A stretch of DNA of 64,000 nucleotides from a virus. The DNA is taken from positions 1-64,000 of the IMG/VR virus record IMGVR_UViG_3300046477_000628. One strand, given 5' to 3'. A program made the position numbers and the translations under genes. Under the pieces are notes generated by a model, which had not been told where the DNA came from, made no database searches, and worked only from the letters and a program-made list of their open reading frames with translations. Shown one piece after another: positions 8,333 through 21,964 of the stretch (position 1 is its first letter; each line of letters starts with the position of its first letter).

Positions 8333-8598
8333 TCCTCCGGAAGTAGGGTGTCTATCTCTGCGGCACCCGCCTCGGTCACATGCACATAGTAGTCGCGACC
8401 TCCGTTAATCGTGTGGCCTCGCTTCATGAGGCCGAGTTCGATCAGTTTGGCGATGTCGGATTCGTGTTCACCGCCAACAGTTTCGCAGAAATAGTTGCGA
8501 AACGGCTTCTTGGCCCGACTCGATCCGAACAGCGAGTGGCGAAGGATCTCGCGTTGCGCTTTGGTTGTGGCGACATGGCCAGTCGATTTCTCGCTCAT
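8302..8598 (-). CDS. Conserved phage protein, winged-helix-like
   Basis: 98 residues whose ATG overlaps the thymidylate synthase stop (ATGA). AQREILRHSLFGSSRAKKPFRNYFC, then LIELGLMKRG and YYVHVTEAGAAEID, resembles a winged-helix architecture seen in conserved phage proteins. A regulatory or nucleic-acid-binding role is inferred. Coupling to the thymidylate synthase gene suggests co-expression. Confidence 0.65.
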   Translation of the reverse strand: MSEKSTGHVATTKAQREILRHSLFGSSRAKKPFRNYFCETVGGEHESDIAKLIELGLMKRGHTINGGRDYYVHVTEAGAAEIDTLLPEECASRRSSTS

Positions 8599-9485
8599 AC
8601 GGCGATCTCCGGTGCTGATTTCAGCGGCCCGTAGTGCTGGTAGTCATTCAACGCGAACATCTCTGGCACAAGGAGACGGCACTGGTCCACCGACAGGTCC
8701 GGAGCCAGGCTCTTGACTGCCCCGTAGACGGTCAGGTTAGGCCACGGCAGAGGCTCGCGGTCGATCTGCTCTAGGACCGCCTCGACCTGGTTGTCGTAGA
8801 TGTGGCAGTCGGCGATGTGCATGTAGATCACTCCTGGAGTCAATCCTGTGACCTCGCACAGGATGTGGTTCAAGAGAGCGTAGCTCGCGAGATTAAAAGG
8901 GAATCCGAAAAACATGTCTATGGATCGCCAGTGGCAGATCATGTCAAGGCGGCCGTTTACGGGTAGCACCTGCCAAAGTGTGTGGCACGGGGCTAGCCCC
9001 ATCTTGGGCACATCGGGTGCGTTCCAGGCCGAGACAACCAGCCGGCGTCGAGAACGATCGAATGGGTTCTCGTGGACTCTCTTGAGGTCATCAACCAGGC
9101 GTCCGATCTGGTCCCAGTCCTTGTAGTCGTGCGGTCCGTCCTCGTACTCCCATCTACGCCACTGGTATCCGTACACGGGTCCGACGTTTCCACGCTTGTC
9201 GGCCCACTGGTTCCAGATGCCGCATCCGAGGGTTCCGATGTTGGTGTCCCCGCGAAGGAACCACAGAAGTTCCTTGACCACCGAGACCCACTGGAGTTTC
9301 TTGGTCGTGATCGCCGGGAACCCAGTGCGCAGGTCGTGGATAAACTGGACGCCGACCAACGAGATCGCATGCGGTTGCCTCTGCTCTTTCTCCAGGAATG
9401 TGCCGGTTGGCACCTTCTCGCCGTAATCCAAGATGGATCGGAGCACGTGTTCGTAACTTGTGTTTTCTCGAGGAATCTCGATCAT
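8595..9485 (-). CDS. thyA: Thymidylate synthase
   Basis: 296 residues, close to the usual length. It makes dTMP from dUMP with methylene-tetrahydrofolate. The active-site Cys167 lies in LAPCHTLWQ (usual form PPCH); RSID (187-190) binds phosphate. GFPFNLASYALL carries the Asn that favours dUMP over dCMP. HIADCHIY replaces the common HxxGDxHLY. GGAGG precedes the ATG. Phage copies raise thymidine supply after infection. I see no other nucleotide-modifying enzyme beside it, so an unusual base is not implied. Confidence 0.95.
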   Translation of the reverse strand: MIEIPRENTSYEHVLRSILDYGEKVPTGTFLEKEQRQPHAISLVGVQFIHDLRTGFPAITTKKLQWVSVVKELLWFLRGDTNIGTLGCGIWNQWADKRGNVGPVYGYQWRRWEYEDGPHDYKDWDQIGRLVDDLKRVHENPFDRSRRRLVVSAWNAPDVPKMGLAPCHTLWQVLPVNGRLDMICHWRSIDMFFGFPFNLASYALLNHILCEVTGLTPGVIYMHIADCHIYDNQVEAVLEQIDREPLPWPNLTVYGAVKSLAPDLSVDQCRLLVPEMFALNDYQHYGPLKSAPEIAV

Positions 9486-11839: not shown

Positions 11840-12562
11840 CTAGAGGATGTTCGCTTTCAGAATCCGCTGGACCGACATCTTGTGCCATCGGCCAACGATG
11901 ACACGTCCATCCTTGCGTACGACACCCTTGTTCTTGGTCGAGATCCCGTCTTCGTTTAGTCGGTCGGCGATCTCTTTGAGAGACAAGCCTTCTCGACGCA
12001 GCCGCCGTGCGATGCGTGCGATTTCCATTTCACCAGGATTGTCGAGCAAGGTTTTGCCGTTCTCGGCAAGTTTTTTACCAAACGGGACAGAACCAGTTCG
12101 CTCGCCGCGAATCTTCTTGGCCTTAAGGGCTGAAATGGTTCTGACTTTGATGATGAGCCGCTCGTACTCGCCGAAAGCATCGACGATTCGGCGCATCAGC
12201 ACGTCGGTTGGGCTGTCGCTTTCGGTGCCTTCGCCGGCCGCAGAGATAATTCGGGCACCTTTTCGCCGAACTGCGGCTTCGATCATTGCGACGATGATCG
12301 GGTCTCTGCCGAGCCGGTCTCGCTTGGCGACGATCAGGATGTCGCCTTTTTCGAGGCAGGAGATCGCCTCGAATAACTCTGGCCGATCTTCGAGCGGTGA
12401 CACCGAACTCACTCCGGCGTCTTCGGTGGCGAAAATCCTCACCAGCTCAACGCCGAGGCGATCGGCGCACGCCTTGATGACGTCGTCCTGGGCGTTCATG
12501 CCAGCGCCAGATTCAGCCTGACTGTCTTTGCTGACCCTCTTGTATCCGATTGCTTTGCACAT
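11840..12562 (-). CDS. Serine recombinase (resolvase/invertase family)
   Basis: 240 residues starting at the ATG at 12562 (GGAG upstream). The N-terminal resolvase domain has the nucleophile Ser11 in YKRVSKDSQ. It also has Arg-rich catalytic-pocket segments (AKRDRLGRDP near residue 80, EYERLIIKVRT near residue 130). The C-terminal part (about 165-240) has the ARRLRREGLSLKEIADRLN helix-turn-helix and a terminal SVQRILKAN motif. It is far shorter than large serine integrases, so it may resolve, invert or integrate. The catalytic pattern looks complete. Confidence 0.9.
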   Translation of the reverse strand: MCKAIGYKRVSKDSQAESGAGMNAQDDVIKACADRLGVELVRIFATEDAGVSSVSPLEDRPELFEAISCLEKGDILIVAKRDRLGRDPIIVAMIEAAVRRKGARIISAAGEGTESDSPTDVLMRRIVDAFGEYERLIIKVRTISALKAKKIRGERTGSVPFGKKLAENGKTLLDNPGEMEIARIARRLRREGLSLKEIADRLNEDGISTKNKGVVRKDGRVIVGRWHKMSVQRILKANIL

Positions 12563-16260: not shown

Positions 16261-17925
16261 ATGGCACAGAGATACACCGCCAGTTCGGTGCCGATGGGCG
16301 ATCTCAACGGTCTGAGTAACCTGGCCGCGTCGATCTCCGGACGAATTACCATCCGTTGGGACGAGCGAGCGTTCGTCACGCAGAACGTCTTCGGCGATGC
16401 CCGCGACTGGCAGTTGTACACGAACCGCAGGAACAGGTACGCGAACTACTGGTCGCACTACGAGGCCACGATCTACCGGCGGATCAACGAGTGGGCCGAG
16501 GAACTGAAGGAAGAGAACGCCCTTTACGAGCACATCCGCACCATCTACTCGCCAGCTCATCGTCTTGGCGAGTTCTGGGCCACGCATCTCTGCGGGGGCA
16601 GCCTTGACCCCGATGCCGGCGACGGCGACGTCAAGCCCACCGCGATACCTATCGTCACCAAAAACGACAATATTCGGCCAGCACTCTCCAAGCTCTGGCT
16701 CGACTCGCACTGGCAGTCAGAGAAGGAGATCTATGGCCGCTTCGGTGCCGTCATGGGCGACGTCATGCTCACCGTCGAGGACGACCCCGACGACAAACTT
16801 GTTCGGATCAGGGTGATCGATCCCAGAACGGTGTTCGACGTCGATGAAGACTCGCACGGGAACGTGCGCGGCTACGTTCGCATGTACATGCGTCCCGACC
16901 CCAGGCTAGAACTCTATATGCAGTCTGGTACGATCCCCGTGCCCCACGTCCTGTACAAGGAGGTGTGCCATCGCAGGGGCGACGAGATCATCTACGAGAC
17001 CTTCCTGGACAATGAGCCATTCGACTGGGCACACCAGGATCGATGGGGGACGATGCCGCGCGGCACCCAGTGGATGGAAGACTACGGGTTCGTGCCGTTC
17101 GTTCGTGTCCAGCACAAAAACATCGGGCTCAAGTGGGGCGTGGGCGAATACTTCGGCCTCGTGAGCAAGCTCTTTGAGGTCGATGACCAGGCGTCGAAGC
17201 TCGGCGACCACGTGCGCAGGACCGTGGAGTGCCCGTGGCTGTTCGCGGGTCTGGTCCCCGAGAACATGTCGATCACCACCAATCAGCCCGACGACAAGGA
17301 AGGTCAGGGCCGGCAGCGTGTCCCGATCATCTACTCGTCGGATTCCAACGCCAAGGCCCAGGCGCTAGTAGCGACGCTGAACATCGCGGACGTCCTGAGC
17401 AACATCCAGGCGATCCAGAAGACAATCGAGGCCGAACACCCAGAGTTGACCGCGGACCTCGCTGTGGCCACGGGAGACGCTTCAGGAAGGGCTCTGCGTG
17501 TCGCCCGAGAGAAGGCTGAGGCACTGGTAACCCAGCGTCGCGCCGTCTACGACGAAGCGCTGGTCAAGATCCACCAGATGGCGATCGCGATCGGGGCTCA
17601 AAAGGGATACCCGGGGTACGAGGGGTTTGGAAAGAATTCGTTCTATAGCGGGGAACTCGCGCACACGATCGGCCCCAGGGCTGTTTTCGCCCTCAACGAA
17701 TTTGACAAACTTGAAGAAGAATTGCATCGAGCGAATGTGGTGAAAACCCTTAGAGAGTCAGGGGTTCCGCTGGAACTCTCGATGATCAGAGCTGGTTACG
17801 ACGAAAAAACTCTCGAATCCATGAAAAAAATGAGGGATGAAGAGATTGAGTACCAATTGCGTGCCGTGCAGACGAGGCAGCGTCAGGCGATGTCTGACGG
17901 AGCCAACTACGGGATCACTCAATAG
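16261..17925 (+). CDS. Portal protein
   Basis: 554 residues, ATG with GAGGA upstream. The size, position directly after terminase and moron, and motifs fit a phage portal: an Arg-Asn-rich YTNRRNRYANYW segment near the N-terminus, VRIRVIDPRTVFDVD (wing domain), and helices with VDDQASKLGDHVRRTVE followed by SNIQAIQKTIEAEHPEL. It forms the dodecameric ring at one capsid vertex through which DNA enters and leaves. No signature database search was possible. Confidence 0.85.
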   Translation: MAQRYTASSVPMGDLNGLSNLAASISGRITIRWDERAFVTQNVFGDARDWQLYTNRRNRYANYWSHYEATIYRRINEWAEELKEENALYEHIRTIYSPAHRLGEFWATHLCGGSLDPDAGDGDVKPTAIPIVTKNDNIRPALSKLWLDSHWQSEKEIYGRFGAVMGDVMLTVEDDPDDKLVRIRVIDPRTVFDVDEDSHGNVRGYVRMYMRPDPRLELYMQSGTIPVPHVLYKEVCHRRGDEIIYETFLDNEPFDWAHQDRWGTMPRGTQWMEDYGFVPFVRVQHKNIGLKWGVGEYFGLVSKLFEVDDQASKLGDHVRRTVECPWLFAGLVPENMSITTNQPDDKEGQGRQRVPIIYSSDSNAKAQALVATLNIADVLSNIQAIQKTIEAEHPELTADLAVATGDASGRALRVAREKAEALVTQRRAVYDEALVKIHQMAIAIGAQKGYPGYEGFGKNSFYSGELAHTIGPRAVFALNEFDKLEEELHRANVVKTLRESGVPLELSMIRAGYDEKTLESMKKMRDEEIEYQLRAVQTRQRQAMSDGANYGITQ

Positions 17926-18396: not shown

Positions 18397-18602
18397 ACCA
18401 ACCATGGATCTGCCCCAAGTGTGGTCGAGGAGTCGCGCCGCACCAGAACGCGTGTGACCACGGCTGGCCGTACGTGTCCACGCCTGCGCCATGGGTGCCA
18501 ACCTATATCAACGTGCCCCCTTCCTCTCCATGTCCGCCGACCCAGCAGACGACAAGGTCTGCCCCGTGGGAAGTTTTCCCGTGGAGTAAAATTCCGCGAT
18601 GA
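18393..18602 (+). CDS. Zinc-ribbon mini-protein
   Basis: 69 residues from a GTG overlapping the preceding stop. WICPKCGRGVAPHQNACDH is a CxxC...C type knuckle of a kind repeated in phage mini-proteins; the rest is Pro-rich and disordered. A similar protein is at 22243-22446. The role is unknown. Confidence 0.65.
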   Translation: MNQPWICPKCGRGVAPHQNACDHGWPYVSTPAPWVPTYINVPPSSPCPPTQQTTRSAPWEVFPWSKIPR

Positions 18603-19084
18603 GAGTCTTTGGAAGTTTCTGTATCGTTGTCTTCGCATGCTCCAGCAGCACGGCGAGCCCTGTGAAGGTTGTCGATCTGCTCAAGAAACAAGAGTTGGTC
18701 GCCAGCACCGATGAAGCGCGAAGGGCGATCTGGATTGGGATCGTGTCGATCAACGGGATTGAGATCAAGAGCACCAGCGACGAACACGAACCGCGCGTCG
18801 GAGACGTCTTGCACGTGGGGCGAAAACACCGAGTCTTTGGGCAACCGAAGGTTCCTTCCAGCGATCCTTCCCAAGTGAGATTCGGAGACCTCTCCGTGGG
18901 CGACAGGTTCACCGAGGACATGGAGCCGAGTTGCCGGTTGATGGAGAAGGTGGAGCGTACGGAGATTCAGTTTAGGCGATGGAGCGCCAACGTTAATGCG
19001 ATGGGCGTAGGGTGTCCTGCGGCCGTCGAGTGCTACAAGGACGACGCCATGGTTTACAAGGTTGAACTGCGGGAGAGCAAATGA
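18599..19084 (+). CDS. S4-like RNA-binding plus small beta-domain protein
   Basis: 161 residues. Residues 22-80 match an S4 RNA-binding fold: VKVVDLLKKQELV, DEARRAIWIGIVSING and VGDVLHVGRKHRVF. Residues 90-160 hold FGDLSVGDRFT and a beta-rich stretch that recurs in the proteins at 20535 and 20817. The ATG start (overlapping the upstream stop) gives a hydrophobic, signal-like N-terminus; a GTG at 18662 would begin directly at the S4 domain. S4 domains bind structured RNA. Confidence 0.65.
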   Translation: MRVFGSFCIVVFACSSSTASPVKVVDLLKKQELVASTDEARRAIWIGIVSINGIEIKSTSDEHEPRVGDVLHVGRKHRVFGQPKVPSSDPSQVRFGDLSVGDRFTEDMEPSCRLMEKVERTEIQFRRWSANVNAMGVGCPAAVECYKDDAMVYKVELRESK

Positions 19085-20379
19085 TCCTGGTTGGTGATGC
19101 ACTTGAGAAACTGAGGACGCTGCCCGACAGGTCAGTCCAGATGTGTTGCACATCGCCTCCCTATTTCAATCTCCGCGACTACGGGACAGGACGCTGGGAA
19201 GGTGGAGATCCCGCGTGCGAGCACGGCGTCGGCGTGGCCCTTGGTCCCAAAGGAAGCGTGGCCGTTCTGACCGGCCACGCTTCCAAGGCTGACAGGCTGA
19301 ATCGCAAGGAATGCCGTTGCGGCGCGATTCGTATCGATCAGCAGATTGGACTGGAGAATTCGCCGTCCGAATTCATCGAGAAACTAGTCGAGGTGTTCAG
19401 GGAAGTCAGAAGGGTGCTCCGAGACGACGGCACGGTTTGGTTGAATTTGGGAGATGCGTTTTCAAATGACACGAAGTGGGGTGGCAGGTCGGACAGTAAG
19501 AACCAGCATTCGGCCGATGGCGAAATGGTCGGGCAGCGAGGACGCCGAAACACTGGATTCAAACCAAAAGATCTGATGTTGATACCGCATCGCGTGGCTA
19601 TCGCTCTCCATGACGACGGATGGTGGGTTCGGGGCGACAATGTGTGGTCAAAACCCAACGCGCTACCCGAGAGCGTGACCGATAGGCCGTCTCGGGCCCA
19701 CGAGTACGTTTTCCTGCTCGCGAAGTCGCAGAGATATTTCTACGACGCGGAGGCTGTCAAGGAACCTGTCGGGGAGTGGATGAGCAAAGACAAGAGATAC
19801 GGGAAGAATGGAACTGGAAGAGACGGGGAAGTCAAGGACTGGATAAATACAGCGTCCATTAGCGGGCCCCACAAAGGCTTCAAGAACGTTGATTTCACAG
19901 ATGGTAGAAACCTGCGTTCCGTGTGGGACATCACAACGAAGCCCTCGGGCGTGAAGCACTACGCCACGATGCCTGTCGATCTCGCTGAGCGGTGCATCAA
20001 GGCTGGATCTTCAGAGACTGGAGAATGTCCTTCTTGTGGTTCTACGTGGCGTCGGGTTGTGCATCGCACCCCGATCGGTTCTCCGGATTACCATCGGGGT
20101 GCGATGGCAGGAGAGATCGGTCGCACGTCTCCATCGGGCACCATGCTTGAACCTCCCAAGTCCGAGACGATCGGCTGGAAACCGTCCTGCAAGTGCCCCG
20201 AGCATGAACCAGTCCCACAGACCATACTCGATATGTTTTTTGGAGTCGGCACCACAGGTATCGCATCGCAGCGGCTGGGGCGTCGCTACATCGGGATCGA
20301 GTTGAACCCCAAGTACGCGGCGATTGCCGAGAATCGCATCAAATCAGACAAGTCCAACATGAGTCTATTTCCGTTGTAG
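19081..20379 (+). CDS. DNA methyltransferase (beta-class, N4-cytosine or N6-adenine)
   Basis: 432 residues, ATG overlapping the previous stop. The catalytic TSPPYF (24-29) comes first and the AdoMet-binding FxGxGT block (MFFGVGTTG, 385-393) comes last, the beta-class order. A Cys-rich insert (CPSCGSTWRRVV, later SCKCPEH) looks like a zinc ribbon, and CEHG and CRCG lie near residues 48 and 80. SPPYFNLRDYG favours an N4-cytosine type enzyme, though adenine cannot be excluded. It would protect phage DNA from host restriction. Confidence 0.88.
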   Translation: MILVGDALEKLRTLPDRSVQMCCTSPPYFNLRDYGTGRWEGGDPACEHGVGVALGPKGSVAVLTGHASKADRLNRKECRCGAIRIDQQIGLENSPSEFIEKLVEVFREVRRVLRDDGTVWLNLGDAFSNDTKWGGRSDSKNQHSADGEMVGQRGRRNTGFKPKDLMLIPHRVAIALHDDGWWVRGDNVWSKPNALPESVTDRPSRAHEYVFLLAKSQRYFYDAEAVKEPVGEWMSKDKRYGKNGTGRDGEVKDWINTASISGPHKGFKNVDFTDGRNLRSVWDITTKPSGVKHYATMPVDLAERCIKAGSSETGECPSCGSTWRRVVHRTPIGSPDYHRGAMAGEIGRTSPSGTMLEPPKSETIGWKPSCKCPEHEPVPQTILDMFFGVGTTGIASQRLGRRYIGIELNPKYAAIAENRIKSDKSNMSLFPL

Positions 20380-20389
20380 GAGGTGTATC

Positions 20390-20530
20390 ATTCCCAAAGG
20401 CACACGCGTTGATTCTGTGTTTCAAGCGCTGAAGAAGAAAGGCCTTCCTGTGGGCGAGGCAGCGGCGATCGCCCAGTCCAGAACAGGACTCTCGTTGAAG
20501 ACTGGCCGCAAACCCAAGAAAAAGAAGTGA
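20390..20530 (+). CDS. 46-residue basic protein with ATT start
   Basis: ATT at 20390 is followed by codons for PKGTRVDSVFQALKKKG, then AAAIAQSRTGLSLKTGRKPKKKK. Small phage proteins of this kind normally begin M-P-K-G-T-K-V, so ATT sits exactly where the start Met belongs. GGAGG is 6 nt upstream, right after the methyltransferase stop. No ATG, GTG or TTG is available upstream in frame. The product is highly basic and probably binds nucleic acid. AUU initiation is rare but known. Confidence 0.7.
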   Translation: MPKGTRVDSVFQALKKKGLPVGEAAAIAQSRTGLSLKTGRKPKKKK

Positions 20531-20534
20531 GCCA

Positions 20535-20807
20535 ATGTACCCAGACCACGGCCACAAGTACTGCCACCACGATCGTCCGATCTTCCTCGACGACCTGATC
20601 CCCGGAGATCGGTTCACGGTGTCTCCGGATATGTTCGAGCGGATCGGCTCCCCGATGGAGCAGGTGTTCGTGAAGCTTGAAGATGTTCAGGTCGTTGACA
20701 CCGACGGATCAACCAAGACTGCCAACTGCCGCGATCACTACGAGAATTCTTTTTACCTTCTCTCTGGAGACATTCGTGTCTTCAAGGTCGATGAGTCAAC
20801 TCTCTAG
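20535..20807 (+). CDS. Small beta-domain protein, GD-motif family
   Basis: 90 residues. IFLDDLIPGDRFTVS aligns with FGDLSVGDRFT in the 18599 protein and FRDLKPGDMFEIN in the next gene, and the beta-strands and spacing after it are similar. The His-rich start (DHGHKYCHHDRP) could bind metal. The start signal is weak. The family may be a small RNA- or protein-binding module. Confidence 0.65.
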   Translation: MYPDHGHKYCHHDRPIFLDDLIPGDRFTVSPDMFERIGSPMEQVFVKLEDVQVVDTDGSTKTANCRDHYENSFYLLSGDIRVFKVDESTL

Positions 20808-20816
20808 GAGTATCGA

Positions 20817-21104
20817 GTGTACCAGGATCAGCGTCCCCATAAGAACCACGGTCATCCGGAGCACAGCGGTCACCCTGAACACTTCAGAGACCTCAAGCCC
20901 GGCGACATGTTCGAGATCAACGACTCGCAGTTCATGCGTGCGCGAGATCACGGCCTCGGGCTCCGCAGGCTCTACGTTAAACTCGATGTCACTACTGTCG
21001 TTTTGCACGGCGAACACACCAAGACCTGCAACGCCAGGGACCAGCACGGCACCCACTTCCACCTGATTGACGACGATACCCTTGTCACCAAGATTCACTG
21101 CTAA
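20817..21104 (+). CDS. Small beta-domain protein, GD-motif family
   Basis: 95 residues from a GTG at 20817 with GGAG upstream. A His-rich N-terminus (HKNHGHPEHSGHPEHF) precedes FRDLKPGDMFEI, which pairs with the 20535 and 18599 proteins. C-terminal beta-strands follow. The His cluster suggests metal chelation. Tandem with 20535, likely a local duplication. Confidence 0.65.
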   Translation: MYQDQRPHKNHGHPEHSGHPEHFRDLKPGDMFEINDSQFMRARDHGLGLRRLYVKLDVTTVVLHGEHTKTCNARDQHGTHFHLIDDDTLVTKIHC

Positions 21105-21113
21105 GGAGACAGG

Positions 21114-21536
21114 ATGCGATTCCCATCCCGGGGCTACGTGGTGTTTGCGATAGGACTCACTTGCATGGCGGCGGTTCTCCTCACGGTGATCCAGCCAGCA
21201 ACGCCAATTGGTTCGGTGACCGGGATTAGCTCTACTGGCATTCAGGTCACGTCTCCCGCTTCCGGCGCCAAGGTGAAGACCGGAGAACATCAGTCCGTGG
21301 CAGTCACTGTCACAGAGGGGCACTGGAGCGACTTCGCCCTGACGATCGAGGTTTCTGTTCGCGACGACAATGGCACGACGATGTGGAAGGGAAAGGGTGG
21401 CTTGAGCGGCGGCACCGCGACGATCTCATGGCCTGTCTCTGTCAAGCCCGGCAAGTACACTCTGGAAGCAAAGACAGTAGGGATGTTCGGGTTCGTGAAC
21501 AGCGTGTGCTCGCACAGTCTGGAGGTGACTGAGTGA
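21114..21536 (+). CDS. Membrane-anchored Ig-like protein
   Basis: 140 residues, ATG with AAGGAG upstream. A signal or anchor (YVVFAIGLTCMAAVLLTVI) precedes an Ig-like beta-sandwich (ITVTSPASGAKVKTGEHQ-type motifs, then DFALTIEVSVRDDNGTTMW and PVSVKPGKYTLEAKTVG). It overlaps the CAP-domain gene by GTGA, suggesting a functional pair at the cell surface. Confidence 0.65.
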   Translation: MRFPSRGYVVFAIGLTCMAAVLLTVIQPATPIGSVTGISSTGIQVTSPASGAKVKTGEHQSVAVTVTEGHWSDFALTIEVSVRDDNGTTMWKGKGGLSGGTATISWPVSVKPGKYTLEAKTVGMFGFVNSVCSHSLEVTE

Positions 21537-21964
21537 TCAGTCGAGAGACCGCGATGCGGCGGGTGCTGTTCCCGTTCTCAGCGGGCAAGCCGTCCCCGCC
21601 TCGCCCGATGCTCCAGGGATTCGGGGACGAGATCAACCGGGTTCGGGTTGAGAACGGCCAGCACCCGCTGATTCAAGACCCGCTCGTGGACATGCACGCC
21701 CAGGAGTGGTCTACGGTGATGGCTGAGTGCGGGAAACTCTGGCACGGCAACCACGAGATGCGGTTCCACCGGTTCTGGCCCGACAGGCTGGCCGCTGAGA
21801 ACATCGCCATGGGATACCCGAGCGTCGAAGCCGTAGTCGCCGGCTGGATGGCAGACAGGGCTCACAGATACAACTTGTTGCACGATCAGTGGAGCGTGGT
21901 TGGCGTGGGTCTGGCTCGCGCCGAGGATAGCACACCGTACTGGTGTGCGCAATTCGTGGAGTAA
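21533..21964 (+). CDS. CAP-domain (SCP/PR1-like) protein
   Basis: 143 residues from a GTG at 21533 with GGAGG upstream. Signature features of the CAP superfamily are INRVRVENGQHPL, HAQEWSTVMAECG, LWHGN, ENIAMGYPS, VVAGWM, HRYNLL and YWCAQFVE. Bacterial CAP proteins are usually secreted and appear in cell-surface or adhesion processes, often with no enzymatic role shown. No classic signal peptide is visible here. It is an unusual phage cargo gene. Confidence 0.85.
   Translation: MISRETAMRRVLFPFSAGKPSPPRPMLQGFGDEINRVRVENGQHPLIQDPLVDMHAQEWSTVMAECGKLWHGNHEMRFHRFWPDRLAAENIAMGYPSVEAVVAGWMADRAHRYNLLHDQWSVVGVGLARAEDSTPYWCAQFVE

What the first reader, a model, noticed from the sequence alone, without database searches (positions are those of the whole stretch)
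20390..20530. Small basic gene apparently starting with ATT
The reading frame matches a conserved phage mini-protein exactly at the ATT codon, with GGAGG at ideal spacing, while ATG, GTG and TTG are absent upstream in frame. AUU initiation is rare and known mainly for infC. It may be a way to keep this gene at low expression.
Basis: partly seen in the sequence, partly recalled or inferred. Interest (0 to 1): 0.6.

Follow-up and report, generated by a model that had tools for sequence, protein, structure and literature searches.

The report
Phage mini-gene with ATT start codon
A short conserved phage gene that in all the other phages examined begins with the usual start codons ATG or GTG has ATT at exactly that place in this one phage, behind an intact ribosome-binding site, so it is probably a rare, inefficiently translated start, although a recent mutation or a sequencing error cannot be excluded.

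Summary
Frame 20363-20530 (+) encodes a 46-residue basic protein of a phage family (relatives match Pfam DUF7218 and PHROGs 4974/19034/20929). Between the upstream in-frame stop and 20416 there is no ATG, GTG, TTG or CTG. The family's start position falls on ATT at 20390, six bases after GGAGG (20379-20383), also the commonest spacing in relatives (28 of 89). Among 92 distinct loci the homologous codon is ATG in 83 and GTG in 5; three start one codon further upstream, one lies inside a longer frame, and none has ATT, ATC or ATA. A scan of 2.9 million viral contigs for an ATH-start version of the commonest N-terminal motif found no family member. The ATT is therefore a single-lineage exception, not a conserved regulatory device. 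The likeliest reading is a real gene initiated at AUU with fMet, coupled to the methylase stop just upstream and translated at a reduced rate. 'Selected for low expression' is unsupported. Without reads or a close relative, an assembly error or a recent loss-of-start mutation stays open. The record shows no excess of ATT after GGAGG (4 seen, 4.7 expected). AUU starts are known for infC, pcnB and S. aureus cvfC1. A modest, new member of a known kind.

The parts
20390..20530 (+). Small basic protein gene, 46 codons plus stop TGA; the relatives' family matches Pfam DUF7218 (PF23855)
   Evidence: homologous to about 90 distinct viral loci over its whole length; all family-invariant residues other than the initiator are kept
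20390..20392 (+). ATT, inferred start codon
   Evidence: Aligned with ATG (83) or GTG (5) in 92 distinct relatives; 6 bases after GGAGG, the relatives' modal spacing
20387..20389 (+). ATC, alternative non-canonical start one codon upstream (3-base spacing)
   Evidence: a spacing of 3 occurs in 2 of 89 relatives; three relatives start one codon further upstream than usual
20379..20383 (+). Shine-Dalgarno GGAGG, overlapping the last base of the methylase stop codon
19081..20379 (+). Upstream gene: DNA methyltransferase (N6_N4_Mtase), stop TAG at 20377-20379, 10 bases before the ATT
   Evidence: PF01555 6e-43; phrog_67 1.3e-63
20535..20807 (+). Downstream 90-aa gene, ATG 4 bases after the mini-gene's TGA, without a strong SD of its own, so possibly translationally coupled
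   Evidence: coupling is inferred
20417..20530 (+). Longest frame with a usual start (GTG, 37 aa); judged not to be the real gene start
   Evidence: no SD; loses the conserved N-terminus present in all relatives

Best explanation
This is a real phage gene for a 46-residue basic, two-helix protein. Its start codon has changed from the ancestral ATG (or GTG) to ATT in this phage lineage. Ribosomes are placed by GGAGG six bases upstream, helped by arrival of ribosomes that end the methylase at the TAG overlapping that GGAGG. They initiate with ordinary initiator fMet-tRNA on AUU by a first- and second-base match, so the protein still begins with Met and is otherwise unchanged. Output is expected to be a fraction of that from AUG (about 10% at the measured AUU start of S. 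aureus cvfC1) and sensitive to host IF3. Shown here: frame, homology, start position, SD and uniqueness of ATT. Inferred: that the base is correct, that AUU is used, and that output is reduced. Not shown: that low output was selected.
For: Frame, SD and absence of usual upstream starts. Exact alignment of ATT with ATG/GTG in 88 of 92 distinct relatives. The SD spacing equals the relatives' mode. The ORF is undamaged and keeps every family-invariant residue except the initiator (P2, V7, Q29, T32, L36, T38, G39), so the gene has not decayed. AlphaFold gives a confident fold for this very sequence, pLDDT 94. The RBS is not in unusually stable RNA structure (z = 0.81). Many relatives also sit directly behind an upstream stop. 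AUU starts with strong SDs are documented: infC in E. coli (PMC5472188) and the 61-aa cvfC1 of S. aureus (PMC13009471).
Against: No relative uses ATT (0 of 92), and a scan for ATH versions found none in the family. No other gene in the record clearly uses a non-canonical start, and GGAGG-N5-7-ATT is not enriched. No tRNA gene was found in the window that could suggest altered initiation. A single metagenomic consensus cannot separate a true T from an error. No expression data.
Confidence: 0.63

Rival explanations
1. Sequencing or assembly error: the phage really has ATG and the consensus reads ATT.
For: All relatives have ATG or GTG; the change is a single base; the record is a single IMG/VR consensus and no second copy was found.
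Against: The surrounding ORF and its neighbours are intact; consensus base errors in assembled contigs are rare (own knowledge). Lineages that replace AUG by AUU do occur, though rarely: 1 of 61,358 reconstructed AUG starts (PMC5622118).
Confidence: 0.15
2. Recent loss-of-start mutation: the gene is a null or near-null allele in this lineage, tolerated because the protein is dispensable, and AUU use is only leakage.
For: Single-lineage occurrence; the gene is small and of unknown importance.
Against: No decay of the ORF, and the SD and spacing are intact. AUU behind a strong SD still gives measurable product elsewhere.
Confidence: 0.13
3. The start is the ATC at 20387 (one codon upstream), or both ATC and ATT are used.
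For: ATC is also non-canonical (the infC start in Streptomyces); three relatives start one codon further upstream (MSPKG...).
Against: A spacing of only 3 bases, found in 2 of 89 relatives; 88 of 92 relatives start at the ATT position.
Confidence: 0.06
4. Translation begins at the internal GTG 20417 (37 aa), or the frame is entered by +1 frameshifting from the methylase.
For: GTG is the first usual start in frame; the frame is open for 27 bases upstream of ATT and overlaps the methylase end.
Against: No SD at GTG 20417; it would delete conserved P2/G4/V7. Relatives are separate genes with their own ATG behind various upstream genes, and no recognised slippery site is seen at TTG-TAG-G.
Confidence: 0.03

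Closest known systems
infC (IF3) of E. coli, AUU start
   Same: AUU in place of AUG behind a good SD, lowering initiation and making it IF3-sensitive (PMC5472188)
   Different: infC is autoregulated by its own product and its unusual start is conserved; here the protein is unrelated to IF3 and ATT is unique to one lineage
pcnB of E. coli, AUU start (Binns and Masters 2002, seen as a reference in PMC13009471)
   Same: AUU start that limits expression, no autoregulation implied
   Different: Experimentally shown there; only inferred here
cvfC1 of Staphylococcus aureus, AUU start
   Same: Small protein (61 aa), strong SD, AUU start; about 10% of the AUG level (PMC13009471)
   Different: cvfC1 has a conserved AUU among staphylococci and ribosome-profiling support
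sigR of Streptomyces, GTC start
   Same: Non-canonical start repressed by IF3 (PMC5472188)
   Different: Different codon, demonstrated regulatory role, conserved in streptomycetes
DUF7218 (PF23855) / phrog_4974, 19034, 20929 phage mini-proteins
   Same: Same protein family as the relatives, with the motif MPKG[TS]xVxxxY...AARIAQxxTGxSLKTGRKPK
   Different: All family members examined start with ATG or GTG; the window protein itself is below threshold for these models and joins through its relatives

Membership tests
AUU-initiated bacterial/phage gene (infC/pcnB/cvfC1 kind) | Homologous start codon is ATT, with no usual start upstream in frame | tested here: met
AUU-initiated bacterial/phage gene (infC/pcnB/cvfC1 kind) | SD at productive spacing | tested here: met
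   GGAGG, 6 bases; relatives' modal spacing is 6
AUU-initiated bacterial/phage gene (infC/pcnB/cvfC1 kind) | Unusual start conserved in relatives (true of infC and cvfC1; supporting rather than strictly defining) | tested here: not met
   0 of 92; no ATH family member in a pattern scan covering the commonest N-terminal motif
AUU-initiated bacterial/phage gene (infC/pcnB/cvfC1 kind) | Initiation at AUU demonstrated | not testable with these tools
   Needs proteomics, ribosome profiling or a reporter
DUF7218-like phage mini-protein family | Sequence match over the whole length to members | tested here: met
   37-64% identity to the 48 other members of alignment A3; tblastn E down to 4e-15
DUF7218 (PF23855) | Pfam model hit of the window protein itself | tested here: not met
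   No hit at E<=0.1 for the window protein; 39 of 49 alignment members hit, best 1.8e-11; also not found in the record by model
IF3-autoregulated gene | Product is IF3 | tested here: not met
   46-aa two-helix protein, no similarity to IF3 in Pfam

The most novel reading that the evidence does not exclude
This phage lineage adopted AUU to throttle a basic nucleic-acid-binding mini-protein, and through coupling the next gene as well, making both depend on host IF3 level during infection.
Probability: 0.12. Interest if true: 0.5.

Novelty: new member of a known kind. Interest (0 to 1): 0.27.

Why it matters
Gene finders that allow only ATG, GTG and TTG would miss or truncate this gene. The case shows how homology at the exact start codon, rather than an SD alone, can reveal non-canonical starts in phage genomes. 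It gives one clean phage candidate for testing how a gene survives on an AUU start. It does not establish a regulatory principle.

Tried and rejected
A conserved regulatory AUU was rejected: no relative has it. A phage-encoded initiator or other tRNA able to read AUU was not supported: no tRNA genes in the window (the remaining 27.5 kb of the record were not scanned for tRNAs). Record-wide use of ATT starts was rejected: no clear second case and no enrichment after GGAGG. Start at GTG 20417 and frameshifting from the methylase were rejected for lack of an SD, loss of conserved residues, and separate genes in relatives. Regulatory mRNA structure over the RBS is not supported (z = 0.81). Searches for a near relative of the phage by the 554-aa protein at 16261-17925, terminase, methylase and an exact mini-gene pattern gave no close copy, so the base could not be checked against a sister genome. 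tblastn of the mini-protein in the annotated phage collection found nothing; a bacterial genome scan gave no relatives. Foldseek matches of the two-helix model are not significant, and the three PDB sequence hits cover only 16-17 positions with no stretch passing on its own, so no molecular function was taken from them.

Full report
What is there. The window lies in a 91.5-kb virus record. At 19081-20379 (+) is a DNA methyltransferase ending in TAG. The next frame, open from 20363 to the TGA at 20528-20530, reads VYFRCRRCI-I-PKGTRVDSVFQALKKKGLPVGEAAAIAQSRTGLSLKTGRKPKKKK. Before 20417 it holds no ATG, GTG, TTG or CTG; the only candidate codons are ATC (20387) and ATT (20390). GGAGG lies at 20379-20383, overlapping the last base of the methylase stop and 6 bases before the ATT.

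Where the relatives start. Searches of viral contigs brought in two overlapping sets of 80 related loci; after removing duplicates, 92 distinct loci carry the motif. At the codon aligned with the window's ATT, 83 have ATG and 5 have GTG. Three have their ATG or GTG one codon further upstream (MSPKG...), and one lies within a longer frame. None has ATT, ATC or ATA. In 89 loci (the window included) the commonest distance from the Shine-Dalgarno core to the start is 6 bases (28 loci), the same as for the window's ATT; the 3-base distance that ATC would have occurs twice. A separate scan of all viral contigs for ATH followed by the commonest N-terminal motif (PKGTKV and then His, Gln, Asp or Glu) gave 34 stretches, none of them from this family. 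That scan covers only part of the family's sequence variety.

Chance. In the whole record GGAGG followed after 5-7 bases by ATT is seen 4 times where 4.7 are expected, while ATG is seen 17 times against 7.3. So an SD in front of an ATT proves nothing alone. What makes the case is that homology fixes the start at this codon independently, and only about 0.28% of positions have GGAGG at that distance.

Is the gene alive? The ORF is uninterrupted and keeps the invariant residues of a 49-sequence alignment other than the initiator. AlphaFold predicts two helices (residues 6-16 and 21-32) with mean pLDDT 94. The family matches Pfam DUF7218 for 39 of 49 members and PHROGs of unknown function. In a number of relatives it sits beside terminase large subunit and head-tail adaptor genes, and in the window it lies about 5.5 kb downstream of the terminase. 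With a basic tail and a helical hairpin it may bind nucleic acid in head assembly or packaging; this is inference only, since no structural match is significant.

How it most likely works. A start changed from ATG or GTG to ATT in one lineage, with an untouched SD. Ribosomes placed by GGAGG, some of them just released from the methylase stop, start with fMet on AUU. From the measured AUU start of S. aureus cvfC1 (about 10% of AUG, PMC13009471) a several-fold drop is expected, and IF3 should repress it, as for infC (PMC5472188). The gene after it (20535) starts 4 bases beyond the mini-gene's stop with no strong SD, so its output may fall too; this coupling is inferred.

What is not known. There are no reads and no close relative of this phage. 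A consensus error or a recent loss-of-start mutation would look the same. In a published reconstruction AUG changed to AUU once in 61,358 starts (PMC5622118), so true changes are rare too, and the two cannot be ranked firmly. No other gene in this record clearly needs a non-canonical start, and the window has no tRNA gene.

Verdict. Interpretation as AUU initiation is likely but unproven; 'kept at low expression on purpose' is not supported because the feature is not conserved. It is a new, isolated member of a known kind.

Noticed in passing
window 20535-20807 and 20817-21104: Two neighbouring genes of about 90 aa are paralogues (34% identity, E 4e-13), His-rich at the N-terminus, with no significant Pfam or PHROG family.
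   Followed up: partly
window 18599-19084: 161-aa protein with a weak match to the C-terminal (S4-like) domain of tyrosyl-tRNA synthetase (PF22421, E 0.0015, below cut-off).
   Followed up: no
window 21533-21964: A phage-borne CAP/SCP-domain protein (PF00188, E 3.8e-10) with GTG start behind a full GGAGGTGA.
   Followed up: no
window 11840-12550 and 8595-9485 (-): Integrase/invertase (phrog_95, phrog_125) and thymidylate synthase (phrog_160).
   Followed up: no
L184:2998: One family relative carries the mini-protein motif without a start codon at the usual place (AAG), apparently inside or at the end of a longer frame: a possible fusion.
   Followed up: no
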